Shown here piece after piece: positions 30,601-58,203 of a DNA stretch of 64,000 nucleotides. Source of the DNA: Perkinsus olseni (taxonomy: Eukaryota > Perkinsozoa > Perkinsida > Perkinsidae); contig JABANP010000221.1 in the NCBI GenBank assembly GCA_013115135.1, positions 17,736 through 81,735 of the forward strand, read 5' to 3'. Made by a program: the position numbers and the translations under genes. The first letter of the stretch is position 1; each line of letters begins with the position of its first letter. The notes beneath the pieces were generated by a model. The model saw only the letters and a list, made by a program, of their open reading frames with translations, was not told where the DNA came from and did no database searches.

Positions 30601-31081
30601 CGCTGCGGACTCACATTTTGGATGACTCAGTGAAACAACATGTGCTGTGACTGAAGCGATCAAAGGTGTCTCAGCGGTTCCGTACCAAACGCGTTGCCTT
30701 AAATAGTCTTGGCCAAAGTTCGGCGCACAGTGGTCCGGAGGACCCCCTGATTTTCACTCGTCCCTCCCTTCTTTCTCCCCAGTCTTTGTATTACTTACAA
30801 CTCCGACAGGCTTCGAACGGCTGCTGGTAATTTCTCTACTCCCTACTACGCTATCCATCACCCACGAAAAAACGCACTTACAGCAGGAATAAACATTGTG
30901 CGGGGGAGGAGGTGAATGGTCAATTGGTCAATCGATCAGGAGATGTAAAAAACAATTTTTTGGTTTTCATATCAATTGCGGATCAATAAATCAATTAACC
31001 AGTCAACGAGTGATTGATTTCTCAGCTCCCAATGACGAAATCGTCCCGGCAATCGAGGAGGTTCACGAACTGCTCCTGGAT

Positions 31082-31155
31082 GCCCGATTAGTTCAGCTGG
31101 ATAGAATGTCTGCCTACGGAGCAGATGGTCGTAGGTTCGAATCCTGCATCGGGTA
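31082..31155 (+). tRNA. tRNA-Arg(ACG), array 1 unit 1
   Basis: Full cloverleaf: acceptor GCCCGAT/ATCGGGT with discriminator A; D-stem GTTC/GAAT; anticodon stem TCTGC/GCAGA around loop CTACGGA (anticodon ACG); T-stem GTAGG/CCTGC with loop TTCGAAT. The internal A box (TTAGTTCAGCTGG) and B box (GGTTCGAATCC) match Pol III promoters. No intron and no encoded CCA. Confidence 0.93.
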
Positions 31156-31200
31156 GGCTTTCAGCTCTGGCCGACATAGCGATAGCCCTCGAAACGATGA

Positions 31201-31282
31201 CGACACCTGAGGGATTCGAACCCTCGCGGGCATAGCCCAACGGCTTAGCAGGCCGCCGCCTTAATCACTCGGCCAAAGTGTC
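31201..31282 (-). tRNA. tRNA-Ser(GCT), array 1 unit 1
   Basis: Class II tRNA: acceptor GACACTT/AGGTGTC, discriminator G (typical of serine tRNAs), anticodon stem GCGGC/GCCGT around loop CTGCTAA (anticodon GCT), long variable arm GGGC-TAT-GCCC, T-stem GAGGG/CCCTC with TTCGAAT. This copy has one D-loop substitution (TTAATCACT on the + strand). It converges on the tRNA-Arg 45 bp away. Confidence 0.92.
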
Positions 31283-31598
31283 TCAAACACATTATGGTAG
31301 CACCAGCTGCTCAACTCATTGGAGCTTTCTGACTGAAAAAGGCGTTACTCGCTATAATATTCAGAAACTGCCTTGGCCGAAGTTAACGAGAGCCGCGGCC
31401 ACTCGACCTCCCATGTATCTACCCGCTACTATCTATATCGTACAACGCAGGCAGGCTTCGAACGGCTGCTGGTAATTTATCTACTCCCCATCCCTCGTAC
31501 GACGCTACCTACCACCCACGAGAGACCCACTTACAGCAGGAATCAACATTGTGCGGGGTAGGAGGTGAATGGTCAATTGGTCAATCGATCAGGTGATG

Positions 31599-31613
31599 TA
31601 AAAAAACTTTTTT
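31599..31613. terminator. Palindromic A7-C-T6 block, candidate two-way Pol III terminator
   Basis: Sequence GTAAAAAAACTTTTTTGGG. It gives a run of at least six T on both strands, the RNA polymerase III stop signal. The same block occurs once per unit throughout both arrays, varying in length. It is the first long T-run met by a + strand transcript from tRNA-Arg (about 450 nt downstream) and the outer boundary for - strand transcription from the next unit's tRNA-Ser. Its role is inferred. Confidence 0.5.
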
Positions 31614-31640
31614 GGGTTTTTATATCAATTGCGGATCAAC

Positions 31641-31673
31641 AAATCAATCAACCAGTTAACGAGTGATTGATTT
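31641..31673. repeat. Inverted repeat in array unit (hairpin, 10-bp stem)
   Basis: AAATCAATCA and TGATTGATTT are exact inverted copies separated by 13 nt. Most units keep it; some array-1 and array-2 units carry AAATCAATTA in the left arm, weakening the stem. It lies about 60 bp upstream of tRNA-Arg. Confidence 0.6.
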
Positions 31674-31734
31674 CTCGCCTCCCAATGACGAAAACGTCCC
31701 GGCAATCGAGGAGGTTCACGAACTGCTCCTGGAT

Positions 31735-31808
31735 GCCCGATTAGTTCAGCTGGATAGAATGTCTGCCTACGGAGCAGATGGTCGTAGGTTCGAATCCTGC
31801 ATCGGGTA
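31735..31808 (+). tRNA. tRNA-Arg(ACG), unit 2
   Basis: Same cloverleaf as the 31082 copy, no changes. Confidence 0.92.
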
Positions 31809-31853
31809 GGCTTTCAGCTCTGGCCGACATAGCGATACCCCTCGAAACGATGA

Positions 31854-31935
31854 CGACACCTGAGGGATTCGAACCCTCACGGGCATAGCCCAACGGCTAA
31901 GCAGGCCGCCGACTTAACCACTCGGCCAAAGTGTC
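31854..31935 (-). tRNA. tRNA-Ser(GCT), unit 2
   Basis: Anticodon GCT kept, but position 37 changes A to T and the anticodon stem has a G-to-T change, so it may be less stable. Confidence 0.8.
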
Positions 31936-32386
31936 TCGAACACATTATGGTAGCACCAGCTGCTCAACTCATTGGAGCTTTCTGACTGAAAAAGGCGTTA
32001 CTCGCTATACTATTCAGAAACTGCCTTGGCCAAAGTTAACGAGAGCCGCGGCCACTCGACCTCCCATGTATCTACCCGCTACTATCTATATCGTACAACG
32101 CAGGCAGGCTTCGAACGGCTGCTGGTAATTTATCTACTCCCAATCCCTCGTACGACGCTACCTACCACCCACGAAAAACGCACTTACAGCAGGAATCCAC
32201 ATTGTGCGGGGTAGGAGGTGAATGGTCAATTGGTCAATCGATCAGGTGATGTAAAAAAACTTTTTTGGTTTTTATATCAATTGCGGATCAACAAATCAAT
32301 CAACCAGTTAACGAGTGATTGATTTCTCGACTCCCAATGACGAAAACGTCCCGGCAATCGAGGAGGTTCACGAACTGCTCCTGGTT

Positions 32387-32460
32387 GCCCGATTAGTTCA
32401 GCTGGATAGAATGTCTGCCTACGGAGCAGATGGTCGTAGGTTCGAATCCTGCATCGGGTA
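32387..32460 (+). tRNA. tRNA-Arg(ACG), unit 3
   Basis: Intact; the only array-1 copy followed at once by TTTT (32464-32467), a minimal Pol III terminator. Confidence 0.92.
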
Positions 32461-32505
32461 GGCTTTTAGCTCTGGCCGACATAGCGATACCCCTCGAAAC
32501 GATGA

Positions 32506-32587
32506 CGACACCTGAGGGATTCGAACCCTCGCGGGCATAGCCCAACGGCTTAGCAGGCCGCCGCCTTAACCACTCGGCCAAAGTGTC
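32506..32587 (-). tRNA. tRNA-Ser(GCT), unit 3
   Basis: Consensus copy with all stems paired. Confidence 0.92.
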
Positions 32588-33039
32588 TCAAACATATTAT
32601 GGTAGCACCAGCTGCTCAACTCATTGGAGCTTTCTGACTGAAAAAGGCGTTACTCGCTATACTATTCAGAAACTGCCTTGGCCAAAGTTAACGAGAGCCG
32701 CGGCCACTCGACCTCCCATGTATCTACCCGCTACTATCTATATCGTACAACGCAGGCAGGCTTCGAACGGCTGCTGGTAATTTATCTACTCCCCATCCCT
32801 CGTACGACGCTACCTACCACCCACGAAAAACGCACTTACAGCAGGAATCAACATTGTGCGGGGTAGGAGGTGAATGGTCAATTGGTCAATCGATCAGGTG
32901 ATGTAAAAAAACTTTTTTTGGTTTTTATATCAATTGCGGATCAACAAATCAATCAACCAGTTAACGAGTGATTGATTTCTCGCCTCCCAATGACGAAAAC
33001 GTCCCGGCAATCGAGGAGGTTCACGAACTGCTCCTGGAT

Positions 33040-33113
33040 GCCCGATTAGTTCAGCTGGATAGAATGTCTGCCTACGGAGCAGATGGTCGTAGGTTCGAAT
33101 CCTGCATCGGGTA
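33040..33113 (+). tRNA. tRNA-Arg(ACG), unit 4
   Basis: Consensus copy. Confidence 0.92.
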
Positions 33114-33158
33114 GGCTTTCAGCTCTGGCCGACATAGCGATACCCCTCGAAACGATGA

Positions 33159-33240
33159 CGACACCTGAGGGATTCGAACCCTCGCGGGCATAGCCCAACG
33201 GCTTAGCAGGCCGCCGCCTTAACCACTCGGCCAAAGTGTC
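33159..33240 (-). tRNA. tRNA-Ser(GCT), unit 4
   Basis: Consensus copy. Confidence 0.92.
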
Positions 33241-33691
33241 TCAAACACATTATGGTAGCACCAGCTGCTCAACTCATTGGAGCTTTCTGACTGAAAAAGG
33301 CGTTACTCGCTATACTATTCAGAAACTGCCTTGGCCAAAGTTAACGAGAGCCGCGGCCACTCGACCTCCCATGTATCTACCCGCTACTATCTATATCGTA
33401 CAACGCAGGCAGGCTTCGAACGGCTGCTGGTAATTTATCTACTCCCCATCCCTCGTACGACGCTACCTACCACCCACGAAAAACGCACTTACAGCAGGAA
33501 TCAACATTGTGCGGGGTAGGAGGTGAATGGTCAATTGGTCAATCGATCAGGTGATGTAAAAAAACTTTTTTGGTTTTTATATCAATTGCGGATCAACAAA
33601 GCAATCAACCAGTTAACGAGTGATTGATTTCTCGACTCCCAATGACGAAAACGTCCCGGCAATCGAGGAGGTTCACGAACTGCTTCTGGGT

Positions 33692-33765
33692 GCCCGATTA
33701 GTTCAGCTGGATAGAATGTCTGCCTACGGAGCAGATGGTCGTAGGTTCGAATCCTGCATCGTGTA
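33692..33765 (+). tRNA. tRNA-Arg(ACG), unit 5
   Basis: 3' acceptor strand reads ATCGTGT, breaking one acceptor pair. Confidence 0.8.
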
Positions 33766-33810
33766 GGCTTTCAGCTCTGGCCGACATAGCGATACCCCTC
33801 GAAACGATGA

Positions 33811-33892
33811 CGATACCTGAGGGATTCGAACCCTCGCGGGCATAGCCCAACGGCTTAGCAGGCCGCCGCCTTAACCACTCGGCCAAAGTGTC
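33811..33892 (-). tRNA. tRNA-Ser(GCT), unit 5
   Basis: One acceptor change (GATACC on the + strand); otherwise consensus. Confidence 0.88.
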
Positions 33893-34345
33893 TCAAACAC
33901 ATTATGGTAGCACCAGCTGCTCAACTCATTGGAGCTTTCTGACTGAAAAAGGCGTTACTCGCTATACTATTCAGAAACTGCCTTGGCCAAAGTTAACGAG
34001 AGCCGCGGCCACTCGACCTCCCATGTATCTACCCGCTACTATCTATATCGTACAACGCAGGCAGGCTTCGAACGGCTGCTGGTAATTTATCTACTCCCAA
34101 TCCCTCGTACGACGCTACCTACCACCCACGAAAAACGCACTTACAGCAGGAATCAACATTGTGCGGGGTAGGAGGTGAATGGTCAATTGGTCAATCGATC
34201 AGGTGATGTAAAAAAACTTTTTTTGGTTTTTTATATCAATTGCGGATCAACAAATCAATCAACCAGTTAACGAGTGATTGATTTCTCGCCTCCCAATGAC
34301 GAAAACGTCCCGGCAATCGAGGAGGTTCACGAACTGCTCCTGGAT

Positions 34346-34419
34346 GCCCGATTAGTTCAGCTGGATAGAATGTCTGCCTACGGAGCAGATGGTCGTAGGT
34401 TCGAATCCTGCATCGGGTA
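34346..34419 (+). tRNA. tRNA-Arg(ACG), unit 6
   Basis: Consensus copy. Confidence 0.92.
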
Positions 34420-34464
34420 GGCTTTCAGCTCTGGCCGACATAGCGATACCCCTCGAAACGATGA

Positions 34465-34546
34465 CGACACCTGAGGGATTCGAACCCTCGCGGGCATAGC
34501 CCAACGGCTTAGCAGGCCGCCGCCTTAACCACTCGGCCAAAGTGTC
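34465..34546 (-). tRNA. tRNA-Ser(GCT), unit 6
   Basis: Consensus copy. Confidence 0.92.
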
Positions 34547-34998
34547 TCAAACACATTATGGTAGCACCAGCTGCTCAACTCATTGGAGCTTTCTGACTGA
34601 AAAAGGCGTTACTCGCTATACTATTCAGAAACTGCCTTGGCCAAAGTTAACGAGAGCCGCGGCCACTCGACCTCCCATGTATCTACCCGCTACTATCTAT
34701 ATCGTACAACGCAGGCAGGCTTCGAACGGCTGCTGGTAATTTATCTACTCCCAATCCCTCGTACGGCGCTACCTACCACCCACGAAAATCGCGCTTACAG
34801 CAAGAATCAACACTGTGTGGGGGAGGAGGTGAATGGTCAATTGGTCAATCGATCAGGTGATGTAAAAAAACTTTTTTTGGTTTTTATATCAATTGCGGAT
34901 CAACAAATCAATCAACCAGTTAACGAGTGATTGATTTCTCGCCTCTCAATGACGAAAACGTCCCGGCAATCGAGGAGGTTCACGAACTGCTCCTGGAT

Positions 34999-35072
34999 GC
35001 CCGATTAGTTCAGCTGGATAGAATGTCTGCCTACGGAGCAGATGGTCGTAGGTTCGAATCCTGCATCGGGTA
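34999..35072 (+). tRNA. tRNA-Arg(ACG), unit 7
   Basis: Consensus copy. Confidence 0.92.
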
Positions 35073-35117
35073 GGCTTTCAGCTCTGGCCGACATAGCGAT
35101 ACCCCTCGAAACGATGA

Positions 35118-35199
35118 CGACACCTGAGGGATTCGAACCCTCGCGGGCATAGCCCAACGGCTTAGCAGGCCGCCGCCTTAACCACTCGGCCAAAGTGTC
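35118..35199 (-). tRNA. tRNA-Ser(GCT), unit 7
   Basis: Consensus copy. Confidence 0.92.
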
Positions 35200-35651
35200 T
35201 CAAATACATTATGGTAGCACCAGCTGCTCAACTCATTGGAGCTTTCTGACTGAAAAAGGCGTTACTCGCTATACTATTCAGAAACTGCCTTGGCCAAAGT
35301 TAACGAGAGCCGCGGCCACTCGACCTCCCATGTATCTACCCGCTACTATCTATATCGTACAACGCAGGCAGGCTTCGAACGGCTGCTGGTAATTTATCTA
35401 CTCCCAATCCCTCGTACGACGCTACCTACCACCCACGAAAAACGCACTTACAGCAGGAATCAACATTGTGCGGGGTAGGAGGTGAATGGTCAATTGGTCA
35501 ATCGATCAGGTGATGTAAAAAAACTTTTTTTGGTTTTTATATCAATTGCGGATCAACAAATCAATCAACCAGTTAACGAGTGATTGATTTCTCGCCTCTC
35601 AATGACGAAAACGTCCCGGCAATCGGGGAGGTTCACGAACTGCTCCTGGAT

Positions 35652-35725
35652 GCCCGATTAGTTCAGCTGGATAGAATATCTGCCTACGGAGCAGATGGTC
35701 GTAGGTTCGAATCCTGCATCGGGTA
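35652..35725 (+). tRNA. tRNA-Arg(ACG), unit 8
   Basis: Base 26 changed G to A; stems intact. Confidence 0.9.
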
Positions 35726-35770
35726 GGCTTTCAGCTCTGGCAGACATAGCGATACCCCTCGAAACGATGA

Positions 35771-35852
35771 CGACACCTGAGGGATTCGAACCCTCGCGGG
35801 CATAGCCCAACGGCTTAGTAGGCCGCCGCCTCAACCACTCGGCCAAAGTGTC
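35771..35852 (-). tRNA. tRNA-Ser(ACT), unit 8
   Basis: Anticodon loop reads CTACTAA, so the anticodon is ACT instead of GCT; it would still decode serine AGU/AGC. One D-arm change. Confidence 0.8.
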
Positions 35853-36303
35853 TCAAACACATTATGGTAGCACAAGTTGCTCAACTCATTGGAGCTTTCT
35901 GACTGAAAAAGGCGTTACTCGCTATACTATTCAGAAACTGCCTTGGCCAAAGTTAACGAGAGCCGCGGCCACTCGACCTCCCATGTATCTACCCGCTACT
36001 ATCTATATCGTACAACGCAGGCAGGCTTCGAACGGCTGCTGGTAATTTATCTACTCCCCATCCCTCGTACGACGCTACCTACCACCCACGAAAAACGCAC
36101 TTACAGCAGGAATCAACATTGTGCGGGGTAGGAGGTGAATGGTCAATTGGTCAATCGATCAGGTGATGTAAAAAAACTTTTTTGGTTTTTATATCAATTG
36201 CGGATCAACAAATCAATCAACCAGTTAACGAGTGATTGATTTCTCGCCTCTCAATGACGAAAACGTCCCGGCAATCGAGGAGGTTCACGAACTGCTCCTG
36301 GAT

Positions 36304-36377
36304 GCCCGATTAGTTCAGCTGGATAGAATATCTGCCTTCGGAGCAGATGGTCGTAGGTTCGAATCCTGCATCGGGTA
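36304..36377 (+). tRNA. tRNA-Arg(TCG), unit 9
   Basis: Anticodon loop CTTCGGA gives anticodon TCG, an arginine isoacceptor for CGA; all stems intact, base 26 is A. Confidence 0.85.
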
Positions 36378-36422
36378 GGCTTTCAGCTCTGGCCGACATT
36401 GCGATACCCCTCGAAACGATGA

Positions 36423-36504
36423 CGACACCTGAGGGATTCGAACCCTCGCGGGCATAGCCCATCGGCTTGGCAGGCCGCCGCCTTAACCACTCGGTCAAAG
36501 TATC
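36423..36504 (-). tRNA. Ser-type tRNA body with anticodon GCC, unit 9
   Basis: Loop CTGCCAA replaces CTGCTAA, giving a glycine-type anticodon on a serine body (long variable arm, G73). The acceptor has a G-U pair (GATACTT). May be non-functional or mischarged. Confidence 0.7.
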
Positions 36505-36956
36505 TCAAACGCATTATGGTAGCACCAGCTGCTCAACTCATTGGAGCTTTCTGACTGAAAAAGGCGATACTCGCTATACTATTCAGAAACTGCCATGGCC
36601 AAAGTTAACGAGAGCCGCGGCCACTCGACCTCCCATGTATCTACCCGCTACTATCTATATCGTACAACGCAGGCAGGCTTCGAACGGCTGCTGGTAATTT
36701 ATCTACTCCCCATCCCTCGTACGACGCTACCTACCACCCACGAAAAACGCACTTACAGCAGGAATCAACATTGTGCGGGGTAGGAGGTGAATGGTCAATT
36801 GGTCAATCGATCAGGTGATGTAAAAAAACTTTTTTCGGTTTTCATATCAATTGCGGATCAACAAATCAATCGACCAGTTAACGAGTGATTGATTTCTCGC
36901 CTCCCAATGATGAAAACGTCCCGGCAATCGAGGAGGTTCACGAACTGCTCCTGGAT

Positions 36957-37030
36957 GCCCGATTAGTTCAGCTGGATAGAATGTCTGCCTACGGAGCAGA
37001 TGGTCGTAGGTTCGAATCCTGCATCGGGTA
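36957..37030 (+). tRNA. tRNA-Arg(ACG), unit 10
   Basis: Consensus copy. Confidence 0.92.
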
Positions 37031-37075
37031 GGCTTTCAGCTCTGGCAGACATAGCGATACCCCTCGAAACGATGA

Positions 37076-37157
37076 CGACACCTGAGGGATTCGAACCCTC
37101 GCGGGCATAGCCCAACGGCTTAGCAGGCCGCCGCCTTAACCACTCGGCCAAAGTGTC
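37076..37157 (-). tRNA. tRNA-Ser(GCT), unit 10
   Basis: Consensus copy. Confidence 0.92.
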
Positions 37158-37609
37158 TCAAGCACATTGTGGTAGCACCAGCTGCTCAACTCATTGGAGC
37201 TTTCTGACTGAAAAAGGCGTTACTCGCTATACTATTCAGAAACTGCCTTGGCCAAAGTTAACGAGAGCCGCGGCCACTCGACCTCCCATGTATCTACCCG
37301 CTACTATCTATATCGTACAACGCAGGCAGGCTTCGAACGGCTGCTGGTAATTTATCTACTCCCAATCCCTCGTACGACGCTACCTACCACCCACGAAAAA
37401 CGCACTTACAGCAGGAATCAACATTGTGCGGGGTAGGAGGTGAATGGTCAATTGGTCAATCGATCAGGTGATGTAAAAAAACTTTTTTTGGTTTTTATAT
37501 CAATTGCGGATCAACAAATCAATCAACCAGTTAACGAGTGATTGATTTCTCGCCTCTCAATGACGAAAACGTCCCGGCAATCGAGGAGGTTCACGAACTG
37601 CTCCTGGAT

Positions 37610-37683
37610 GCCCGATTAGTTCAGCTGGATAGAATGTCTGCCTACGGAGCAGATGGTCGTAGGTTCGAATCCTGCATCGGGTA
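37610..37683 (+). tRNA. tRNA-Arg(ACG), unit 11
   Basis: Consensus copy. Confidence 0.92.
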
Positions 37684-37728
37684 GGCTTTCAGCTCTGGCA
37701 GACATAGCGATACCCCTCGAAACGATGA

Positions 37729-37810
37729 CGACACCTGAGGGATTCGAACCCCCGCGGGCATAGCCCAACGGCTTAGCAGGCCGCCGCCTTAACCACTCTG
37801 CCAAAGTGTC
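37729..37810 (-). tRNA. tRNA-Ser(GCT), unit 11
   Basis: T-stem has one A-to-G change (GGGGG strand) and the D-arm one change (CTCTGCC on the + strand). Confidence 0.85.
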
Positions 37811-38262
37811 TCAAACACATTATGGTAGCACCAGCTGCTCAACTCATTGGAGCTTTCTGACTGAAAAAGGCGTTACTCGCTATACTATTCAGAAACTGCC
37901 TTGGCCAAAGTTAACGAGAGCCGCGGCCACTCGACCTCCCGCGTATCTACCCGCTACTATCTATATCGTACAACGCAGGCAGGCTTCGAACGGCTGCTGG
38001 TAATTTATCTACTCCCAATCCCTCGTACGGCGCTACCTACCACCCACGAAAGACGCGCTTACAGCAAGAATCAACACTGTGTGGGGGAGGAGGTGAATGG
38101 TCAATTGGTCAATCGATCAGGAGATGTAAAAAACAATTTTCTGGTTTTTATATCAATTGCGGATCAATAAATCAATTAACCAGTCAACGAGTGATTGATT
38201 TCTCGTCTCCCAATGACGAAAACGTCCCGGCAATCGAGGAGGTTCACGAACTGCTCCTGGAT

Positions 38263-38336
38263 GCCCGATTAGTTCAGCTGGATAGAATGTCTGCCTACGG
38301 AGCAGATGGTCGTAGGTTCGAATCCTGCATCGGGTA
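38263..38336 (+). tRNA. tRNA-Arg(ACG), unit 12
   Basis: Consensus copy. Confidence 0.92.
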
Positions 38337-38381
38337 GGCTTTCAGCTCTGGCCGACATTGCGATACCCCTCGAAACGATGA

Positions 38382-38463
38382 CGACACCTGCGGGATTCGA
38401 ACCCTCGCGGGCATAGCCCATCGGCTTGGCAGGCCGCCGCCTTAACCACTCGGTCAAAGTATC
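38382..38463 (-). tRNA. Ser-type tRNA body with anticodon GCC, unit 12
   Basis: Second copy with loop CTGCCAA; shares the unit-9 acceptor variant and has an extra T-arm change (CCTGCGGG on the + strand). The matching array-2 copy (56946) has the normal GCT. Confidence 0.7.
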
Positions 38464-38915
38464 TCAAACGCATTATGGTAGCACCAGCTGCTCAACTCAT
38501 TGGAGCTTTCTGACTGAAAAAGGCGTTACTCGCTATACTATTCAGAAACTGCCATGGCCAAAGTTAACGAGAGCCGCGGCCACTCGACCTCCCATGTATC
38601 TACCCGCTACTATCTATATCGTACAACGCAGGCAGGCTTCGAACGGCTGCTGGTAATTTATCTACTCCCAATCCCTCGTACGACGCTACCTACCACCCAC
38701 GAAAAACGCACTTACAGCAGGAATCACCATTGTGCGGGGTAGGGGGTGAATGGTCAATTGGTCAATCGATCAGGTGATGTAAAAAAACTTTTTTCGGTTT
38801 TCATATCAATTGCGGATCAACAAATCAATCGACCAGTTAACGAGTGATTGATTTCTCGCCTCCCAATGACGAAAACGTCCCGGCAATCGAGGAGGTTCAC
38901 GAACTGCTCCTGGAT

Positions 38916-38989
38916 GCCCGATTAGTTCAGCTGGATAGAATGTCTGCCTACGGAGCAGATGGTCGTAGGTTCGAATACTGCATCGGGTA
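38916..38989 (+). tRNA. tRNA-Arg(ACG), unit 13
   Basis: T-stem closing base C61 changed to A (TTCGAATACTGC); weakened B box. Confidence 0.8.
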
Positions 38990-39034
38990 GGCTTTCAGCT
39001 CTGGCCGACATAGCGATACCCCTCGAAACGATGA

Positions 39035-39116
39035 CGACACCTGAGGGATTCGAACCCTCGCGGGCATAGCCCAACGGCTTAGCAGGTCGCCGCCTTAACC
39101 ACTCGGCCAAAGTGTC
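39035..39116 (-). tRNA. tRNA-Ser(GCT), unit 13
   Basis: Anticodon stem carries one mismatch (GCAGGTCGCC on the + strand). Confidence 0.82.
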
Positions 39117-39568
39117 TCAAACATATTATGGTAGCACCAGCTGCTCAACTCATTGGAGCTTTCTGACTGAAAAAGGCGTTACTCGCTATACTATTCAGAA
39201 ACTGCCTTGGCCAAAGTTAACGAGAGCCGCGGCCACTCGACCTCCCATGTATCTACCCGCTACTATCTATATCGTACAACGCAGGCAGGCTTCGAACAGC
39301 TGCTGGTAATTTATCTACTCCCCATCCCTCGTACGACGCTACCTACCACCCACGAAAAACGCACTTACAGCAGGAATCACCATTGTGCGGGGTAGGGGGT
39401 GAATGGTCAATTGGTCAATCGATCAGGTGATGTAAAAAAACTTTTTTTGGTTTTTATATCAATTGCGGATCAACAAATTAATCAACCAGTTAACGAGTGA
39501 TTGATTTCTCGCCTCCCAATGACGAAAACGTCCCGGCAATCGAGGAGGTTCACGAACTGCTCCTGGAT

Positions 39569-39642
39569 GCCCGATTAGTTCAGCTTGATAGAATGTCTGC
39601 CTACGGACCAGATGGTCGTAGGTTCGAATCCTGCATCGGGTA
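39569..39642 (+). tRNA. tRNA-Arg(ACG), unit 14
   Basis: D-loop G18 changed to T and anticodon stem GCAGA changed to CCAGA (C-C mismatch). Confidence 0.7.
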
Positions 39643-39687
39643 GGCTTTCAGCTCTGGCCGACATAGCGATACCCCTCGAAGCGATGA

Positions 39688-39769
39688 CGACACCTGAGGG
39701 ATTCGAACCCTCGCGGGCATAGCCCAACGGCTTAGCAGGCCGCCGCCTTAACCACTCGGCCAAAGTATC
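39688..39769 (-). tRNA. tRNA-Ser(GCT), unit 14
   Basis: Acceptor GATACTT gives a G-U pair; otherwise consensus. Confidence 0.88.
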
Positions 39770-40221
39770 TCAAACGCATTATGGTAGCACCAGCTGCTCA
39801 ACTCATTTGAGCTTTCTGACTGAAAAAGGCGTTACTCGCTATACTATTCAGACACTGCCATGGCCAAAGTTAACGAGAGCCGCGGCCACTCGACCTCCCA
39901 TGTATCTACCCGCTACTATCTATATCGTACAACGCAGGCAGGCTTCGAACGGCTGCTGGTAATTTATCTACTCCCCATCCCTCGTACGACGCTACCTACC
40001 ACCCACGAAAAACGCACTTACAGCAGGAATCAACATTGTGCGGGGTAGGAGGTGAATGGTCAATTGGTCAATCGATCAGGTGATGTAAAAAAACTTTTTT
40101 TGGTTTTTATATCAATTGCGGATCAACAAATCAATCAACCAGTTAACGAGTGATTGATTTCTCGCCTCCCAATGACGAAAACGTCCCGGCAATCGAGGAG
40201 GTTCACGAACTGCTCCTGGAT

Positions 40222-40295
40222 GCCCGATTAGTTCAGCTGGATAGAATGTCTGCCTACGGAGCAGATGGTCGTAGGTTCGAATCCTGCATCGGGTA
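40222..40295 (+). tRNA. tRNA-Arg(ACG), unit 15
   Basis: Consensus copy. Confidence 0.92.
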
Positions 40296-40340
40296 GGCTT
40301 TCAGCTCTGGCCGACATAGCGATACCCCTCGAAACGATGA

Positions 40341-40422
40341 CGACACCTGAGGGATTCGAACCCTCGCGGGCATAGCCCAACGGCTTAGCAGGCCGCCGCC
40401 TTAACCACTCGGCCAAAGTATC
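40341..40422 (-). tRNA. tRNA-Ser(GCT), unit 15
   Basis: Acceptor GATACTT variant; otherwise consensus. Confidence 0.88.
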
Positions 40423-40874
40423 TCAAACGCATTATGGTAGCACCAGCTGCTCAACTCATTGGAGCTTTCTGACTGAAAAAGGCGTTACTCGCTATACTAT
40501 TCAGAAACTGCCATGGCCAAAGTTAACGAGAGCCGCGGCCACTCGACCTCCCATGTATCTACCCGCTACTATCTATATCGTACAACGCAGGCAGGCTTCG
40601 AACGGCTGCTGGTAATTTATCTACTCCCCATCCCTCGTACGACGCTACCTACCACCCACGAAAAACGCACTTACAGCAGGAATCACCATTGTGCGGGGTA
40701 GGAGGTGAATGGTCAATTGGTTAATCGATCAGGTGATGTAAAAAAACTTTTTTTGGTTTTTATATCAATTGCGGATCAACAAATCAATCAACCAGTTAAC
40801 GAGTGATTGATTTCTCGCCTCCCAATGACGAAAACGTCCCGGCAATCGAGGAGGTTCACGAACTGCCCCTGGAT

Positions 40875-40948
40875 GCCCGATTAGTTCAGCTTGATAGAAT
40901 GTCTGCCTACGGAGCAGATGGTCGTAGGTTCGAATCATGCATCGGGTA
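40875..40948 (+). tRNA. tRNA-Arg(ACG), unit 16
   Basis: G18 to T and T-stem CCTGC to CATGC (one mismatch). Confidence 0.75.
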
Positions 40949-40993
40949 GGCTTTCAGCTCTGGCCGACATAGCGATACCCCTCGAAACGATGA

Positions 40994-41075
40994 CGACACC
41001 TGAGGGATTCGAACCCTCGCGGGCATAGCCCAACGGCTTAGCAGGCCGCCGCCTTAACCACTCGGCCAAAGTGTC
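40994..41075 (-). tRNA. tRNA-Ser(GCT), unit 16
   Basis: Consensus copy. Confidence 0.92.
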
Positions 41076-41527
41076 TCAAACACATCATGGTAGCACCAGC
41101 TGCTCAACTCATTGGAGCTTTCTGACTGAAAAAGGCGTTACTCGCTATACTATTCAGAAACTGCCTTGGCCAAAGTTAACGAGAGCCGCGGCCACTCGAC
41201 CTCCCATGTATCTTCCCGCTACTATCTATATCGTACGACGCAGGCAGGCTTCGAACGGTTGCTGGTAATTTATCTACTCCCAATCCCTCGTACGACGCTA
41301 CCTACCACCCACGAAAAACGCACTTACAGGAGGAATCAACATTGTGCGGGGTAGGAGGTGAATGGTCAATTGGTCAATCGATCAGGTGATGTAAAAAAAC
41401 TTTTTTTGGTTTTTATATCAATTGCGGATCAACAAATCAATTAACCAGTCAACGAGTGATTGATTTCTCGCCTCCTAATGACGAAAACGTCCCGGCAATC
41501 GAGGAGGCTCACGAACTGCTCCTGGAT

Positions 41528-41601
41528 GGCCGATTAGTTCAGCTGGATAGAATGTCTGCCTACGGAGCAGATGGTCGTAGGTTCGAATCCTGCATCGGGT
41601 A
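41528..41601 (+). tRNA. tRNA-Arg(ACG), unit 17
   Basis: Acceptor GGCCGAT has one mismatch at position 2. Confidence 0.8.
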
Positions 41602-41646
41602 GGCTTTCAGCTCTGGCCGACATTGCGATACCCCTCGAAACGATGA

Positions 41647-41728
41647 CGACACCTGGGGGATTCGAACCCTCGCGGGCATAGCCCAACGGCTTAGCAGACC
41701 GCCGCCTTAACCACTCGGCCAAAGTGTC
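41647..41728 (-). tRNA. tRNA-Ser(GCT), unit 17
   Basis: T-arm and anticodon-stem substitutions (CCTGGGGG and CAGACCGCC on the + strand), the latter leaving a G-U pair. Confidence 0.85.
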
Positions 41729-42180
41729 TCAAACACATCATGGTAGCACCAGCTGCTCAACTCATTGGAGCTTTCTGACTGAAAAAGGCGTTACTCGCTA
41801 TACTATTCAGAAACTGCCTTGGCCAAAGTTAACGAGAGCCGCGGCCACTCGACCTCCCATGTATCTACCCGCTACTATCTATATCGTACAACGCAGACAG
41901 GCTTCGAACGGCTGCTGGTAATTTATCTACTCCCAATCCCTCGTACGACGCTACCTACCACCCACGAAAAACGCACTTACAGCAGGAATCAACATTGTGC
42001 GGGGTAGGAGGTGAATGGTCAATTGGTCAATCGATCAGGTGATGTAAAAAAACTTTTTTTGGTTTTTATATCAATTGCGGATGAATAAATCAATTAACCA
42101 GTCAACGAGTGATTGATTTCACGACTCCCAATGACGAAAACGTCCCGGCAATGGAGGAGGTTCACGAACTGCTCCTGGAT

Positions 42181-42254
42181 GCCCGATTAGTTCAGCTGGA
42201 TAGAATGTCTGCCTACGGAGCAGATGGTCGTAGGTTCGAATCCTGCATCGGGTA
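42181..42254 (+). tRNA. tRNA-Arg(ACG), unit 18
   Basis: Consensus copy. Confidence 0.92.
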
Positions 42255-42299
42255 GGCTTTCAGCTTTACCCGACATAGCGATACCCCTCGAAACGATGA

Positions 42300-42382
42300 C
42301 GACACCTGAGGGATTCGAACCCTCGCGGGCAGAGTGTTTAAGGCTTAGCAGGCCGCCGCCTTAAACACTCGGCCAAAGTGTC
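42300..42382 (-). tRNA. tRNA-Ser(GCT), variant, unit 18
   Basis: The variable arm is rewritten (GAGTGTTTAAGG on the + strand, one base longer), perhaps by local gene conversion from the D-arm region; anticodon GCT kept. Confidence 0.6.
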
Positions 42383-42833
42383 TCAAACACATTATGGTAG
42401 CACCAGCTGCTCAATTCATTGGAGCTTTCTGACTGAAAAAGGCGTTACTCGCTATACTATTCAGAAACTGCCTTGGCCAAAGTTAACGAGAGCCGCGGCC
42501 ACTCGACCTCCCGTGAATCTACCCGCTACTATCTATATCGTACAACGCAGGCAGGCTTCGAACGGCTGCTGGTAATTTATCTACTCCCAATCCCTCGTAC
42601 GGCGCTACCTACCACCCACGAAAAACGCACTTACAGCAGGAATCAACATTGTGCGGGGTAGGAGGTGAATGGTCAATTGGTCAATCGATCAGGTGATGTA
42701 AAAAACTTTTTTTGGTTTTTATATCAATTGCGGATCAACAAATCAATCAACCAGTTAACGAGTGATTGATTTCTCGCCTCTCAATGACGAAAACGTCCCG
42801 GCAATCGAGGAGGTTCACGAACTGCTCCTGGAT

Positions 42834-42907
42834 GCCCGATTAGTTCAGCTGGATAGAATGTCTGCCTACGGAGCAGAAGATCGTAGGTTCGAATCCTGCA
42901 TCGGGTA
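42834..42907 (+). tRNA. tRNA-Arg(ACG), unit 19
   Basis: Variable loop AGATC instead of TGGTC; stems intact. Confidence 0.88.
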
Positions 42908-42952
42908 GGCTTTCAGCTCTGGCCGACATAGCGATACCCCTCGAAACGATGA

Positions 42953-43037
42953 CGACACCTGAGGGATTCGAACCCTCGCTGGCATAGCCCAACGGCTTAG
43001 CAGGCCGCCGCCGCCTTAACCACTCGGCCAAAGTGTC
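42953..43037 (-). tRNA. tRNA-Ser(GCT) with 3-nt insertion, unit 19
   Basis: An extra GCC/GGC triplet between the D-arm and anticodon stem makes it 85 nt; probably impaired. Confidence 0.55.
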
Positions 43038-43489
43038 TCAAACACATTATGATAGCACCAGCTGCTCAACTCATTGGAGCTTTCTGACTGAAAAAGGCGT
43101 TACTCGCTATACTATTCAGAAACTGCCTTGGCCAAAGTTAACGAGAGCCGCGGCCACTCGACCTCCCATGTATCTACCCGCTACTATCTATATCGTACAA
43201 CGCAGGCAGGCTTCGAACGGCTGCTGGTAATTTATCTACTCCCCATCCCTCGTACGACGCTACATACCACCCACGAAAAACGCACTTACAGCAGGAATCA
43301 CCATTGTGCGGGGTAGGAGGTGAATGGTCAATTGGTCAATCGATCAGGTGATGTAAAAAAACTTTTTTTGGTTTTTATATCAATTGCGGATCAACAAATC
43401 AATCAACCAGTTAACGAGTGATTGATTTCTCGCCTCCCAATGACGAAAACGTCCCGGCAATCGAGGAGGTTCACGAACTGCTCCTGGAT

Positions 43490-43563
43490 GCCCGATTAGT
43501 TCAGCTTGATAGAATGTCTGCCTACGGAGCAGATGGTCGTAGGTTCGAATCCTGCATCGGGTA
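43490..43563 (+). tRNA. tRNA-Arg(ACG), unit 20
   Basis: G18 to T; otherwise consensus. Confidence 0.85.
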
Positions 43564-43608
43564 GGCTTTCAGCTCTGGCCGACAATGCGATACCCCTCGA
43601 AACGATGA

Positions 43609-43690
43609 CGACACCTGGGGGATTCGAACCCTCGCGGGCATAGCCCAACGGCTTAGCAGGCCGCCGCCTTAACCACTCGGCCAAAGTGTC
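43609..43690 (-). tRNA. tRNA-Ser(GCT), unit 20
   Basis: One T-arm substitution (CCTGGGGG on the + strand). Confidence 0.88.
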
Positions 43691-44142
43691 TCAAACACAA
43701 TATGGTAGCACAAGTTGCTCAACTCATTGGAGCTTTCTGACTGAAAAAGGCGTTACTCGCTATACTATTCAGAAACTGCCTTGGCCAAAGTTAACGAGAG
43801 CCGCGGCCACTCGACCTCCCATGTATCTACCCGCTACTATCTATATCGTACAACGCAGGCAGGCTTCGAACGGCTGCTGGTAATTTATCTACTCCCAATC
43901 CCTCGTACGACGCTACCTACCACCCACGAAAAACGCACTTACAGCAGGAATCAACATTGTGCGGGGTAGGAAGTGAATGGTCAATTGGTCAATCGATCAG
44001 GTGATGTAAAAAAACTTTTTTTGGTTTTTATATCAATTGCGGATCAACAAATCAATCAACCAGTTAACGAGTGATTGATTTCTCGACTCCCAATGACGAA
44101 AACGTCCCGGCAATCGAGGAGGTTCACGAACTGCTCCTGGAT

Positions 44143-44190
44143 GCCCGATTAGTTCAGCTGGATAGAATGTCTGCCTACGGAGCAGATGGT
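44143..44190 (+). pseudogene. Truncated tRNA-Arg, unit 21
   Basis: Ends after the anticodon stem (AGCAGATGGT) and jumps to ACGAGGACGACACC: a deletion of about 66 bp removed the T-arm, the 3' acceptor and most of the gap to tRNA-Ser. Confidence 0.8.
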
Positions 44191-44197
44191 ACGAGGA

Positions 44198-44279
44198 CGA
44201 CACCTGAGGGACTCGAACTCTCGCGGGCGTAGCCAAACGGCATAGCAGGCCGCCGCCTTAACCACTCTGCCAAAGTGTC
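44198..44279 (-). pseudogene. Degenerate tRNA-Ser, unit 21
   Basis: Several stem substitutions, T-loop flank GACTCGAACTCTC and loop CTGCTAT; likely decayed. Confidence 0.55.
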
Positions 44280-44729
44280 ACAAACACATTATGATAGCAC
44301 CAGCTGCTCAACTCATTGGAGCTTTCTGACTGAAAAAATGCGTTACTCGCTATACTATTCAAAACTGCCTTGGCCAAAGTTCACGGGAGCCGCGGCCACT
44401 CGACCTCCCATGTATCTACCGCTACTATCTATATCGTACAACGCAGGCAGGCTTCGAACGGCTGCTGGTAATTTATCTACTCCCAATCCCTCGTACGACG
44501 CTACCTACCACCCACGAAAAACGCACTTACAGCAGGAATCAACATTGTGCGGGGTAGGAGGTGAATGGTCAATTGGTCAATCGATCAGGTGATGTAAAAA
44601 AACTTTTTTTATTTTTATATCAATTGCGGATCAACAAATCAATCAACCAGTTAACGAGTGATTGATTTCTCGCCTCCCAATGACGAAAACGTCCCGGCAA
44701 TCGAGGAGGTTCACGAACTGCTCCTGGAT

Positions 44730-44803
44730 GCCCGATTAGTTCAGCTGGATAGAATGTCTGCCTACGGAGCAATTGGTCGTAGGTTCGAATCCTGCATCGG
44801 GTA
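44730..44803 (+). tRNA. tRNA-Arg(ACG), unit 22
   Basis: Anticodon stem 3' strand reads GCAAT, losing two pairs; doubtful function. Confidence 0.65.
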
Positions 44804-44848
44804 GGCTTTCAGCTCTGGCCGACATAGCGATACCCCTCGAAACGATGA

Positions 44849-44930
44849 CGACACCTGAGGGATTCGAACCCTTGCGGGCGTAGCTCAACGGCTTAGCAGG
44901 CCGCCGCCTTAACCACTCGGCCAAAGTGTC
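44849..44930 (-). tRNA. tRNA-Ser(GCT), unit 22
   Basis: Substitutions in the variable arm (CGTAGCTCAACGG) and T-stem (CCCTTGC); anticodon intact. Confidence 0.75.
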
Positions 44931-45224
44931 TCAAACACATCATGGTAGCACCAGCTGCTCAACTCATTGGAGCTTTCTGACTGAAAAAGGCGTTACTCGC
45001 TATACTATTCAGAAACTGCCTTGGCCAAAGTTCACGAGCCGCGGCCACTCGACCTCCCATGTATCTACCCGCTACTATCTATATCGTACAACGCAGGCAG
45101 GCTTCGAACGGCTGCTGGTAATTTATCTACTCTCAATCCCTCGTACGACGCTACCTACCACCCACGAAAAACGCACTCACAGCAGGAATCAACATTGTGC
45201 GGGGGAGGAGGTGAATAGTTGTAG

Positions 45225-45380
45225 GGGGTCGTGAAAGTGTCCGCGTCGGCCCTAGCCCCTTCGTGACACCGATCATTGCTGGCCTCACTACTCAGTGGAG
45301 TTTCTTGTTTTTCATGGGAGATTCGGCGCAACTTTCGATGCTGGTCTAATGACTCATGGCTCATCGGCCTCGATCCATTG
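45225..45380. repeat. Array-end block, repeated at 63783
   Basis: A 155-bp segment starting TTGTAGGGGGTCGTGAAAG replaces normal unit sequence in the last unit. The same block closes array 2. It has no similarity to the unit and no ORF of note. Confidence 0.75.
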
Positions 45381-45501
45381 AGCAATCGATCAGGTGATGT
45401 ATAAAAAAGTCATTATTTTGGTTTTTATATCAATTGCTGATCAATAGATTAATTACTTGACGAATGATTGATTCCTTACCTCCCAATGACGAAAACGTCC
45501 A

Positions 45502-55732: not shown

Positions 55733-56173
55733 ACAGTAGCACAAGTTGCTCAACTCATTGGAGCTTTCTTACTGAAAAAGGCGTTACTCGCTATACTATT
55801 CAGAAACTGCCTTGGCCAAAGTTAACGAGAGCCGCGGCCACTCGACCTCCCATGTATCTACCCGCTACTATCTATATCGTACAACGCAGGCAGGCTTCGA
55901 ACGGCTGCTGGTAATTTATCTACTCCCAATCCCTCGTACGACGCTACCTACCACCCACGAAAAAAACGCACTTACAGCAGGAATCAACATTGTGCGGGGT
56001 AGGAGGTGAATGGTCAATTGGTCAATCGATCAGGTGATGTAAAAAAACTTTTTGGTTTTTATATCAATTGCGGATCAACAAATCAATCAACCAGTTAACG
56101 AGTGATTGATTTCTCGCCTCTCAATGACGAAAACGTCCCGGCAATCGAGGAGGTTCACGAACTGCTCCTGGAT

Positions 56174-56247
56174 GCCCGATTAGTTCAGCTGGATAGAATG
56201 TCTGCCTACGGAGCAGATGGTCGTAGGTTCGAATCCTGCATCGGGTA
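56174..56247 (+). tRNA. tRNA-Arg(ACG), array 2 unit 1
   Basis: Consensus copy; counterpart of 37610. Confidence 0.92.
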
Positions 56248-56292
56248 GGCTTTCAGCTCTGGCAGACATAGCGATACCCCTCGAAACGATGA

Positions 56293-56374
56293 CGACACCT
56301 GAGGGATTCGAACCCCCGCGGGCATAGCCCAACGGCTTAGCAGGCCGCCGCCTTAACCACTCGGCCAAAGTGTC
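56293..56374 (-). tRNA. tRNA-Ser(GCT), array 2 unit 1
   Basis: Carries the same T-stem change as 37729. Confidence 0.87.
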
Positions 56375-56826
56375 TCAAACACATTATGGTAGCACCAGCT
56401 GCTCAACTCATTGGAGCTTTCTGACTGAAAAAGGCGTTACTCGCTATACTATTCAGAAACTGCCTTGGCCAAAGTTAACGAGAGCCGCGGCCACTCGACC
56501 TCCCGCGTATCTACCCGCTACTATCTATATCGTACAACGCAGGCAGGCTTCGAACGGCTGCTGGTAATTTATCTACTCCCAATCCCTCGTACGGCGCTAC
56601 CTACCACCCACGAAAGACGCGCTTACAGCAAGAATCAACACTGTGTGGGGGAGGAGGTGAATGGTCAATTGGTCAATCGATCAGGAGATGTAAAAAACAA
56701 TTTTCTGCTTTTTATATCAATTGCGGATCAATAAATCAATTAACCAGTCAACGAGTGATTGATTTCTCGCCTCCCAATGACGAAAACGTCCCGGCAATCG
56801 AGGAGGTTCACGAACTGCTCCTGGAT

Positions 56827-56900
56827 GCCCGATTAGTTCAGCTGGATAGAATGTCTGCCTACGGAGCAGATGGTCGTAGGTTCGAATCCTGCATCGGGTA
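56827..56900 (+). tRNA. tRNA-Arg(ACG), array 2 unit 2
   Basis: Consensus copy; counterpart of 38263. Confidence 0.92.
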
Positions 56901-56945
56901 GGCTTTCAGCTCTGGCCGACATTGCGATACCCCTCGAAACGATGA

Positions 56946-57027
56946 CGACACCTGGGGGATTCGAACCCTCGCGGGCATAGCCCAACGGCTTAGCAGGCCG
57001 CCGCCTTAACCACTCGGCCAAAGTGTC
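56946..57027 (-). tRNA. tRNA-Ser(GCT), array 2 unit 2
   Basis: Normal GCT anticodon, unlike its counterpart at 38382; one T-arm change. Confidence 0.88.
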
Positions 57028-57478
57028 TCAAACACATTATGGTAGCACAAGTTGCTCAACTCATTGGAGCTTTCTGACTGAAAAAGGCGTTACTCGCTAT
57101 ACTATTCAGAAACTGCCTTGGCCAAAGTTAACGAGAGCCGCGGCCACTCGACCTCCCATGTATCTACCCGCTACTATCTATATCGTACAACGCAGGCAGG
57201 CTTCGAACGGCTGCTGGTAATTTATCTACTCCCAATCCCTCGTACGACGCTACCTACCACCCACGAAAAACGCACTTACAGCAGGAATCAACATTGTGCG
57301 GGGTAGGAGGTGAATGGTCAATTGGTCAATCGATCAGGTGATGTAAAAAAACTTTTTTGGTTTTTATATCAATTGCGGATCAACAAATCAATCAACCAGT
57401 TAACGAGTGATTGATTTCTCGACTCCCAATGACGAAAACGTCCCGACAATCGAGGAGGTTCACGAACTGCTCCTGGGT

Positions 57479-57552
57479 GCCCGATTAGTTCAGCTGGATA
57501 GAATGTCTGCCTACGGAGCAGATGGTCGTAGGTTCGAATACTGCATCGGGTA
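57479..57552 (+). tRNA. tRNA-Arg(ACG), array 2 unit 3
   Basis: Shares the C61-to-A change of 38916. Confidence 0.8.
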
Positions 57553-57597
57553 GGCTTTCAGCTCTGGCCGACATAGCGATACCCCTCGAAACGATGA

Positions 57598-57679
57598 CGA
57601 CACCTGAGGGATTCGAACCCTCGCGGGCATAGCCCAACGGCTTAGCAGGTCGCCGCCTTAACCACTCGGCCAAAGTGTC
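57598..57679 (-). tRNA. tRNA-Ser(GCT), array 2 unit 3
   Basis: Shares the anticodon-stem mismatch of 39035. Confidence 0.82.
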
Positions 57680-58129
57680 TCAAACATATTATGGTAGCAC
57701 CAGCTGCTCAACTCATTGGAGCTTTCTGACTGAAAAAGGCGTTACTCGCTATACTATTCAGAAACTGCCTTGGCCAAAGTTAACGAGAGCCGCGGCCACT
57801 CGACCTCCCATGTATCTACCCGCTACTATCTATATCGTACAACGCAGGCAGGCTTCGAACGGCTGCTGGTAATTTATCTACTCCCCATCCCTCGTACGAC
57901 GCTACCTACCACCCACGAAAAACGCACTTACAGCAGGAATCACCATTGTGCGGGGTAGGGGTGAATGGTCAATTGGTCAATCGATCAGGTGATGTAAAAA
58001 ACTTTTTTGGTTTTTATATCAATTGCGGATCAACAAATTAATCAACCAGTTAACGAGTGATTGATTTCTCGCCTCCCAATGACGAAAAACGTCCCGGCAA
58101 TCGAGGAGGTTCACGAACTGCTCCTGGAT

Positions 58130-58203
58130 GCCCGATTAGTTCAGCTTGATAGAATGTCTGCCTACGGACCAGATGGTCGTAGGTTCGAATCCTGCATCGG
58201 GTA
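58130..58203 (+). tRNA. tRNA-Arg(ACG), array 2 unit 4
   Basis: G18-to-T and CCAGA anticodon-stem changes, as in 39569. Confidence 0.7.

What the first reader, a model, noticed from the sequence alone, without database searches (positions are those of the whole stretch)
30807..45501. tRNA genes organised as a 653-bp tandem array (Arg-ACG + Ser-GCT), ~22 units
Each unit encodes two structurally sound tRNAs. Most eukaryotes scatter tRNA genes; long tandem tRNA arrays of this kind are best known from Entamoeba. Here about 34 Arg/Ser pairs lie in one window. It may serve translation dosage, chromatin or structural roles, or be a selfish expansion.
Basis: partly seen in the sequence, partly recalled or inferred. 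Interest (0 to 1): 0.88.

Follow-up and report, generated by a model that had tools for sequence, protein, structure and literature searches.

The report
Tandem array of paired tRNA genes
A Perkinsus-like protist carries a 15-kb tandem array of paired arginine and serine tRNA genes, one of several tRNA arrays in its genome, and the tRNA copies in it are changing as fast as the DNA between them, which suggests that no single copy is needed.

Summary
Window 30796-45500 holds 20 full units of 652-656 bp plus partial end units, with 43 tRNA genes; a second block at 55736-64000 holds 23 more. Each unit is a tail-to-tail pair, tRNA-Arg(ACG) and tRNA-Ser(GCT), 44 bp apart. The second block is a 98.6% copy of 37172-45434 and runs off the contig end with rising differences, so its count is not trustworthy. 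The host carries the published Perkinsus spliced leader and has other tRNA arrays: Ser-AGA/Ser-GCT, Ile-TAT, Arg-TCT, Thr-TGT, a shorter Arg/Ser unit. Within the first block tRNA positions change as fast as spacer (1.42% against 1.31%), and some Ser-type copies have other anticodons. Arg copies outside the three large arrays are more often unchanged (37 of 41 against 35 of 52, p 0.012), but this fades when related loci are merged (p 0.055 or 0.24), and for Ser it is not significant (p 0.12). My reading: a recent tandem burst whose copies are individually dispensable, perhaps largely silent. No expression or read-depth data. New member of a known kind.

The parts
30796..31080 (+). left partial unit (unit positions 361-653), no tRNA, 88% identical to unit 1
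   Evidence: self-BLAST of the unit
31081..44141 (+). 20 full tandem units of 652-656 bp
   Evidence: tRNAs
31081..31156 (+). example tRNA-Arg(ACG), first full unit
   Evidence: ARAGORN; RF00005 61.8 bits
31157..31200 (.). 44-bp gap between the two convergent 3' ends; no run of four T on either strand
   Evidence: sequence
31201..31282 (-). example tRNA-Ser(GCT) with long variable arm, first full unit
   Evidence: ARAGORN; RF00005 59.5 bits
31598..31615 (.). A-run followed by T-run in the spacer (27 of 30 full units; 2 of 2000 shuffled spacers); possible two-way fail-safe terminator or bent DNA. Coordinates approximate, for unit 1
36423..36504 (-). Ser-type tRNA body with anticodon GCC (another at 38382-38463)
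44142..44728 (+). unit lacking most of the Arg gene (unit 1-49 joined to 114-653)
44729..45500 (+). last unit of block 1, with about 157 bp of foreign sequence at 45217-45373
55736..64000 (+). block 2: 98.6% copy of 37172-45434, 23 tRNA genes, runs off the contig end; differences rise to the end

Best explanation
A convergent Arg(ACG)/Ser(GCT) tRNA gene pair was amplified head-to-tail into about 22 units in one fairly recent burst (unequal exchange or a rolling type of amplification), and each copy has since aged on its own by about 1.4%. The copies made were intact tRNA genes, but no single copy matters much: mutations in the tRNA bodies, the Ser anticodon included, accumulate at the spacer rate. 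The array is best seen as a redundant set, perhaps largely silent or weakly expressed, kept by recombination and not by demand for each gene, with intact copies elsewhere in the genome able to supply the cell. Shown: the array, its units, its substitution pattern, the other arrays, the intact copies elsewhere. Inferred: the burst, the mechanism of amplification, the low expression, and that the other copies carry the load.
For: Within the 20 full units of block 1, changes from consensus are 45 of 3160 tRNA cells (1.42%), 14 of 880 gap cells (1.59%) and 118 of 9020 spacer cells (1.31%); polymorphic sites 33 of 158 against 69 of 451, Fisher p 0.11, or 27 of 158, p 0.61, without one clustered change. 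Mean pairwise divergence is 2.5%, close to twice the 1.36% from consensus, and is unrelated to distance along the array (Spearman 0.009, Mantel p 0.47), as a star-like burst predicts. The majority Arg sequence of C137, C96 and C968 equals the sequence of the unchanged outside copies, so the arrays were seeded by functional genes. Outside the three large arrays 37 of all 41 Arg pattern matches are letter-identical over 74 bases, against 35 of 52 inside (p 0.012).
Against: No expression data. The outside-versus-array contrast is weak: with outside Arg loci of similar flanks merged it is 24 of 27 (p 0.055) or 15 of 18 (p 0.24), and for Ser 12 of 21 outside against 22 of 61 inside (p 0.12; merged p 0.35 and 0.74). 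An earlier, smaller sample had looked stronger. Array copies are not independent either. Two Ser copies on C119, outside the large arrays, have a changed anticodon. Arg is less variable than Ser within block 1 (pi 0.017 against 0.038; spacer 0.024), and 0 of 93 Arg matches have a changed anticodon against 6 of the 100 listed of 124 Ser matches, a hint of constraint on Arg. All 32 genes named Arg and 27 of 31 named Ser keep a run of three T within 12 bases, so they may still be transcribed.
Confidence: 0.45

Rival explanations
1. Dosage: the array is an active supply of Arg(ACG) and Ser(GCT) tRNA, and single copies drift only because each gives a small share.
For: Most copies are structurally sound (65 of 66 over the Rfam cut-off); the majority sequence equals that of intact copies elsewhere; the three large arrays hold 52 of the 93 Arg genes with an intact anticodon arm; the outside-versus-array contrast is weak.
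Against: Outside Arg copies are also many (41 of 93) and 37 of 41 are unchanged. Other arrays are for Ile-TAT, Arg-TCT and Thr-TGT, with no obvious common demand; codon usage was not measured.
Confidence: 0.3
2. Structural or chromatin role: the array works as a boundary, replication-pause or chromosome-end element, with tRNA genes serving as TFIIIC sites.
For: Arrays recur in the genome; a human tRNA repeat is implicated as a boundary (PMC4041453, abstract and passages); 27 of 30 full units keep an A-run/T-run block.
Against: tRNA bodies, B boxes among them, are not conserved above spacer as a class; no telomere-like tandem repeat was reported in the window; contig ends inside arrays are explained by assembly breaks.
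Confidence: 0.1
3. The copy number is partly an assembly product: block 2 (and possibly part of block 1) reflects another haplotype or a mis-join, not extra units in one chromosome.
For: Block 2 copies 37172-45434 at 98.6%, differences rise towards the contig end, the downstream flank exists whole once, and C96 and C968 look like two versions of one locus (97% and 96% over stretches of about 2.7 kb).
Against: Block 1 units differ from each other by about 2.5% with distinct variants, and flanks on both sides are found whole once, so block 1 is not a repeated copy of one or two units.
Confidence: 0.1

Closest known systems
Arabidopsis thaliana SYY (tRNA-Ser/Tyr/Tyr) cluster, chromosome 1 (PMC12308677, abstract and section 7 read)
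   Same: Tandem units of two kinds of tRNA gene; altered copies inside the cluster (there 13 of 54 clustered Tyr genes give only tRNA-like RNAs, against 1 of 16 dispersed); origin by tandem duplication.
   Different: Genes here are convergent and the unit is 653 bp; here several isoacceptors form arrays; the difference between clustered and other copies is only weakly supported here; silencing and tissue-specific use are shown there, unknown here.
Entamoeba tRNA gene arrays (PMC2652664, parts 1 and 4 of 6 read)
   Same: Several tandem arrays with different isoacceptors, mixed units, retroelements near by.
   Different: In E. histolytica almost all tRNA genes are arrayed, arrays exceed 10% of the genome, short tandem repeats lie between genes, and no clear pseudogenes were seen; here many copies lie outside arrays, no short tandem repeats were found in this array, and altered copies are common.
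Human 1q23.3 tRNA variable tandem repeat (PMC4041453, abstract and passages seen)
   Same: Multi-tRNA unit in tandem, 98% identity between units, retroelements at the edges.
   Different: 7.3-kb unit with five tRNA genes and CTCF binding; boundary role proposed there.

Membership tests
Tandem tRNA gene array (general) | tRNA genes repeated head-to-tail in units of near-constant length | tested here: met
   20 full units of 652-656 bp, the other 19 being 95.9-98.5% identical to unit 1; 66 tRNA genes
Entamoeba-type genome-wide arrays | many distinct arrays for different isoacceptors in one genome | tested here: met
   arrays seen for Arg-ACG/Ser-GCT, Ser-AGA/Ser-GCT, Ser-GCT alone, Ile-TAT, Arg-TCT, Thr-TGT, and a mixed Arg-CCG/Arg-TCT/His locus; only chosen places were read, not a full census
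Entamoeba-type genome-wide arrays | almost all tRNA genes are in arrays | tested here: not met
   for Arg-ACG 52 of 93 exact anticodon-arm matches are in the three large arrays, 41 on 28 other contigs; other isoacceptors not counted
Entamoeba-type genome-wide arrays | complex short tandem repeats between the tRNA genes (E. histolytica and E. dispar) | tested here: not met
   Tandem Repeats Finder reports none inside the window's array; other arrays not tested
SYY-type redundant tRNA cluster | clustered copies more variable than dispersed copies | tested here: inconclusive
   unchanged copies: Arg 35 of 52 inside, 37 of 41 outside, p 0.012, but 0.055 or 0.24 after merging similar outside loci; Ser 22 of 61 and 12 of 21, p 0.12
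SYY-type redundant tRNA cluster | transcriptional silencing in most cells | not testable with these tools
   no RNA data at hand
Perkinsus genome (host assignment) | Perkinsus spliced leader with ATCTTGG core | tested here: met
   146 matches with up to 1 mismatch, 0 in reversed control; the exact matches equal positions 2-22 of PmaSL1 as printed in PMC3101222. Species not determined

The most novel reading that the evidence does not exclude
This protist keeps two tRNA gene populations: scattered genes that are held intact and feed translation, and many large tandem arrays across several isoacceptors that are silent or nearly so and mutate freely, anticodon included. The arrays would then be a standing reservoir of Ser-bodied tRNAs with Gly, Thr, Cys or Ile anticodons (some structurally intact, such as the Ser-bodied GGT copies on C96 and C968, 62.4 bits), which could mistranslate if switched on. 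It would be an independent origin of Entamoeba-like genome-wide arraying, in the alveolates.
Probability: 0.2. Interest if true: 0.75.

Novelty: new member of a known kind. Interest (0 to 1): 0.45.

Why it matters
Why genomes build tandem tRNA arrays is an old open question; the Entamoeba paper calls their function obscure. This genome offers a comparison inside one cell: arrayed and other copies of the same tRNA, and a one-base marker (A or C at Ser gene position 50) that separates the three large Arg/Ser arrays from most other Ser(GCT) copies read. tRNA sequencing already exists for two Perkinsus species (PMC9550989), so the question of silent reserve or active supply could be tested by re-analysis if the species is one of them.

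Tried and rejected
Total tRNA count from the B box: GGTTCRAWYCC has 4362 matches against 167 for the reversed pattern, but of 40 sites read (the first 20 listed on C1 and the first 20 on C2-C4) only 6 are ARAGORN tRNAs, so the count cannot stand for tRNA genes. The other 34 were tested as folded tRNA-like RNA (no acceptor or T-stem pairing beyond chance) and as introns (splice-site words no commoner than on the other strand); neither was supported, so they stay unexplained.

A whole-genome RF00005 search scored only 63 of 7618 first-look candidates, so no total is claimed. Other structured RNAs inside array units: the listed matches (150 of 210) are all tRNA; the 60 lower ones were not shown. 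Local homogenisation gradient: none. Excess mutation of tRNA bodies from transcription: not significant. The outside-versus-array contrast, first run on 31 of 41 Arg and 16 Ser outside copies (p 0.0018 and 0.0095), had left out copies on C38, C36, C119, C156, C599, C668 and C801; with all 41 Arg matches and 21 Ser copies it is much weaker, and the report rests. A protein search to name the host gave relatives at 37-65% identity with no organism named; the spliced leader settled the group instead. Structure prediction was not relevant and not used.
Full report
WHAT IS THERE. ARAGORN finds 66 tRNA genes in the window, all in two blocks, and 65 of them exceed the Rfam tRNA cut-off (34.7-64.9 bits, cut-off 29). 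Block 1 (30796-45500) has 20 full units of 652-656 bp, a partial left unit without tRNA, one unit without most of Arg, and a last unit carrying an insertion of about 157 bp. Each full unit has an Arg-type gene on the + strand and a Ser-type gene on the - strand, 3' end to 3' end, 44 bp apart in unit 1, followed by a spacer of about 450 bp. Block 1 has 21 Arg-type and 22 Ser-type genes. Block 2 (55736-64000) adds 11 and 12.

HOW FAR THE COUNT CAN BE TRUSTED. Block 2 is a colinear 98.6% copy of 37172-45434. The window ends at the contig end. Against block 1, indel events in block 2 per kb run 2, 1, 3, 1, 2, 6, 8, 12, then 3 in the last 268 columns; substitutions run 5, 17, 12, 6, 1, 2, 4, 26, then 7 in the last 268. 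The rise of indels fits poor consensus quality at the end of a contig, so odd tRNAs near 62-64 kb should not be read as decay. The flanks 45501-47400 and 29501-30795 are found whole once in the assembly. Whether block 2 is a true duplication, another haplotype or a mis-join is open. Block 1, with about 2.5% divergence between units, is not a repeated copy of one unit.

HOST. The pattern CCGTAGCCATYTTGGCTCAAG has 146 matches with up to one mismatch in the 61.5-Mb assembly and none for the reversed control. The exact matches are CCGTAGCCATCTTGGCTCAAG, which is PmaSL1 of Perkinsus marinus without its first base (PMC3101222, passages). I call the host Perkinsus-like; the species was not determined.

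OTHER ARRAYS. The unit search gave 151 matches. Reading some of these places shows further arrays: Arg/Ser units of about 316 bp on C96 and C968; Ser-AGA/Ser-GCT on C401; a 186-bp Ser-GCT array on C63, whose spacers hold what looks like a remnant of the Arg 3' end. Other places, chosen from the RF00005 search, show Ile-TAT on C778 (about 166 and 183 bp), Arg-TCT on C823, Thr-TGT on C179 and a mixed Arg-CCG/Arg-TCT/His unit on C607. A convergent Arg/Ser arrangement with a gap of about 41-48 bp recurs on C96, C968, C612, C668 and C38 (from the positions). C96 and C968 are 96-97% alike over stretches of about 2.7 kb, so they may be two versions of one locus.

HOW THE COPIES EVOLVE. In the 20 full units of block 1, changes from consensus are 45 of 3160 cells in tRNA, 14 of 880 in the gap and 118 of 9020 in spacer. 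Polymorphic sites are 33 of 158 in tRNA and 69 of 451 in spacer (Fisher p 0.11; 27 of 158, p 0.61, if one clustered change in unit 18 is set aside). Split by gene, pi is 0.017 for Arg, 0.038 for Ser and 0.024 for spacer. So no constraint on tRNA positions is detectable, with Arg somewhat lower and Ser somewhat higher than spacer. Divergence does not depend on distance along the array (Spearman 0.009, Mantel p 0.47), and pairwise divergence (2.5%) is near twice the divergence from consensus (1.36%), which I read as one burst of amplification followed by independent ageing.

COPIES OUTSIDE THE LARGE ARRAYS. The anticodon-arm pattern has 93 Arg matches: 52 in C137, C96 and C968, and 41 elsewhere, all 41 of which were read. 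Unchanged over 74 bases are 35 of 52 inside and 37 of 41 outside (p 0.012); the four exceptions are two on C38, one on C556 and one on C668. Merging outside copies with similar flanks gives 24 of 27 families (p 0.055) at a 75% threshold and 15 of 18 (p 0.24) at 60%. For Ser, allowing A or C at gene position 50, 22 of 61 inside and 12 of 21 outside copies are unchanged (p 0.12; merged p 0.35 and 0.74); the 21 are not all outside Ser matches, since only 100 of 124 were listed, and the C401 and C63 array copies were left out of both groups. 'Outside' includes small groups (C612, C253, C297, C38, C119), and inside copies are not independent. My first sample (31 Arg, 16 Ser copies) had left out loci that go against the contrast, so the stronger p values there are withdrawn. 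Without the pattern filter 16 of 32 Arg copies in the window are unchanged.

ANTICODON VARIANTS. Ser-bodied copies have GCC (2), ACT (1) and, in the unreliable tail, GCG (1) in the window; GGT and GCA on C96; GGT on C968; GAT (2) on C401; GCA on C36; decayed forms on C63; GGT (2) on C119 and GTT (1) on C401. Arg-bodied variants are TCG (1) in the window, and ATG (2) and GCG (1) on C96. Genome-wide, 6 of the 100 listed of 124 Ser pattern matches have another anticodon, and 0 of 93 Arg matches (p 0.03); these counts need an otherwise intact arm. From general knowledge, seryl-tRNA synthetase reads the long arm and not the anticodon, so such genes would mistranslate if expressed; that is inference. 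The GCC copies score lower than the best Ser copies (48.2 and 41.4 against 62.5 bits), whereas the GGT copies on C96 and C968 score 62.4 bits.

TERMINATION. Within 25 bases downstream a run of four T is found in 1 of the 32 genes that ARAGORN names Arg (one of them the Ser-bodied GCG tail copy) and 0 of the 31 it names Ser. A run of three within 12 bases is found in 32 of 32 and 27 of 31. Distinct unchanged Arg copies elsewhere (the 21 examined) have a run of three within 12 bases in 13 of 21 cases, against 3 of 21 upstream (p 0.004). In the 1.6-kb piece read of the Ile-TAT array on C778, most copies have no run of three further downstream. In 27 of 30 full units of the two blocks the spacer has an A-run/T-run block (2 of 2000 shuffles). 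Either short T-runs suffice here, or some arrays are read through or not transcribed.

WHAT IS KNOWN. In E. histolytica almost all tRNA genes are arrayed and the function is called obscure (PMC2652664, parts 1 and 4 of 6 read). A 2010 survey found large tRNA clusters in several unrelated lineages (PMC2888827, passages); plants have them too (PMC11700998, passages). The Arabidopsis SYY cluster is silent in most tissues but active in root caps, and its Tyr copies are more altered than dispersed ones (PMC12308677, abstract and section 7). A human tRNA repeat has 9-43 units (PMC4041453, abstract and passages). No report of tRNA arrays in Perkinsus or dinoflagellates showed in the listings of six searches (four of them listed only part of their hits) of an open-access library that lacks most subscription papers. 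Perkinsus tRNA sequencing exists and reports 50 canonical tRNAs (PMC9550989, section 8).

VERDICT. A real tandem tRNA array, of a kind known elsewhere, in a lineage where I saw no earlier report of one. The useful element is that arrayed and other copies of the same tRNA can be told apart, which makes a direct test of silent reserve against active supply possible.

Noticed in passing
genome-wide; window 18708 (+): A dispersed B-box-like motif: the 34 non-tRNA sites among 40 B-box sites read on C1-C4 have the consensus AAGGTCCC-n-GGTTCGATCCC-CGC-nnnnn-GCATT. Its first 20 bases with up to 3 mismatches occur 2166 times against 9 for the reversed control. No RNA pairing and no splice-site enrichment beyond chance. 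Possibly extended TFIIIC-type sites; unexplained.
   Followed up: partly
48780-55241: A retroelement with tyrosine recombinase, reverse transcriptase and a third open frame on the - strand and split direct repeats (48780-49010 / 49237-49467 at 99.6%; 49035-49236 / 55040-55241 at 100%), the layout of Ngaro/PAT-type DIRS elements as I recall it; it lies between the two blocks.
   Followed up: partly
46510-47040 (-): Open frame with a BING4CT domain (UTP7-like ribosome-biogenesis gene) about 1 kb downstream of block 1.
   Followed up: no
C778:307601-309200 and 264701-266100 (L046, L047): Two head-to-tail arrays of tRNA-Ile(TAT), a decoder of the AUA codon, with different unit lengths in one contig.
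   Followed up: no
C63:64135-65331 (L018): Ser-GCT array whose spacers keep what looks like a remnant of the Arg 3' end, so it may be an Arg/Ser array that lost Arg.
   Followed up: no
C268:207896-235713: Twenty exact spliced-leader matches at recurring distances, an apparent spliced-leader RNA array.
   Followed up: no
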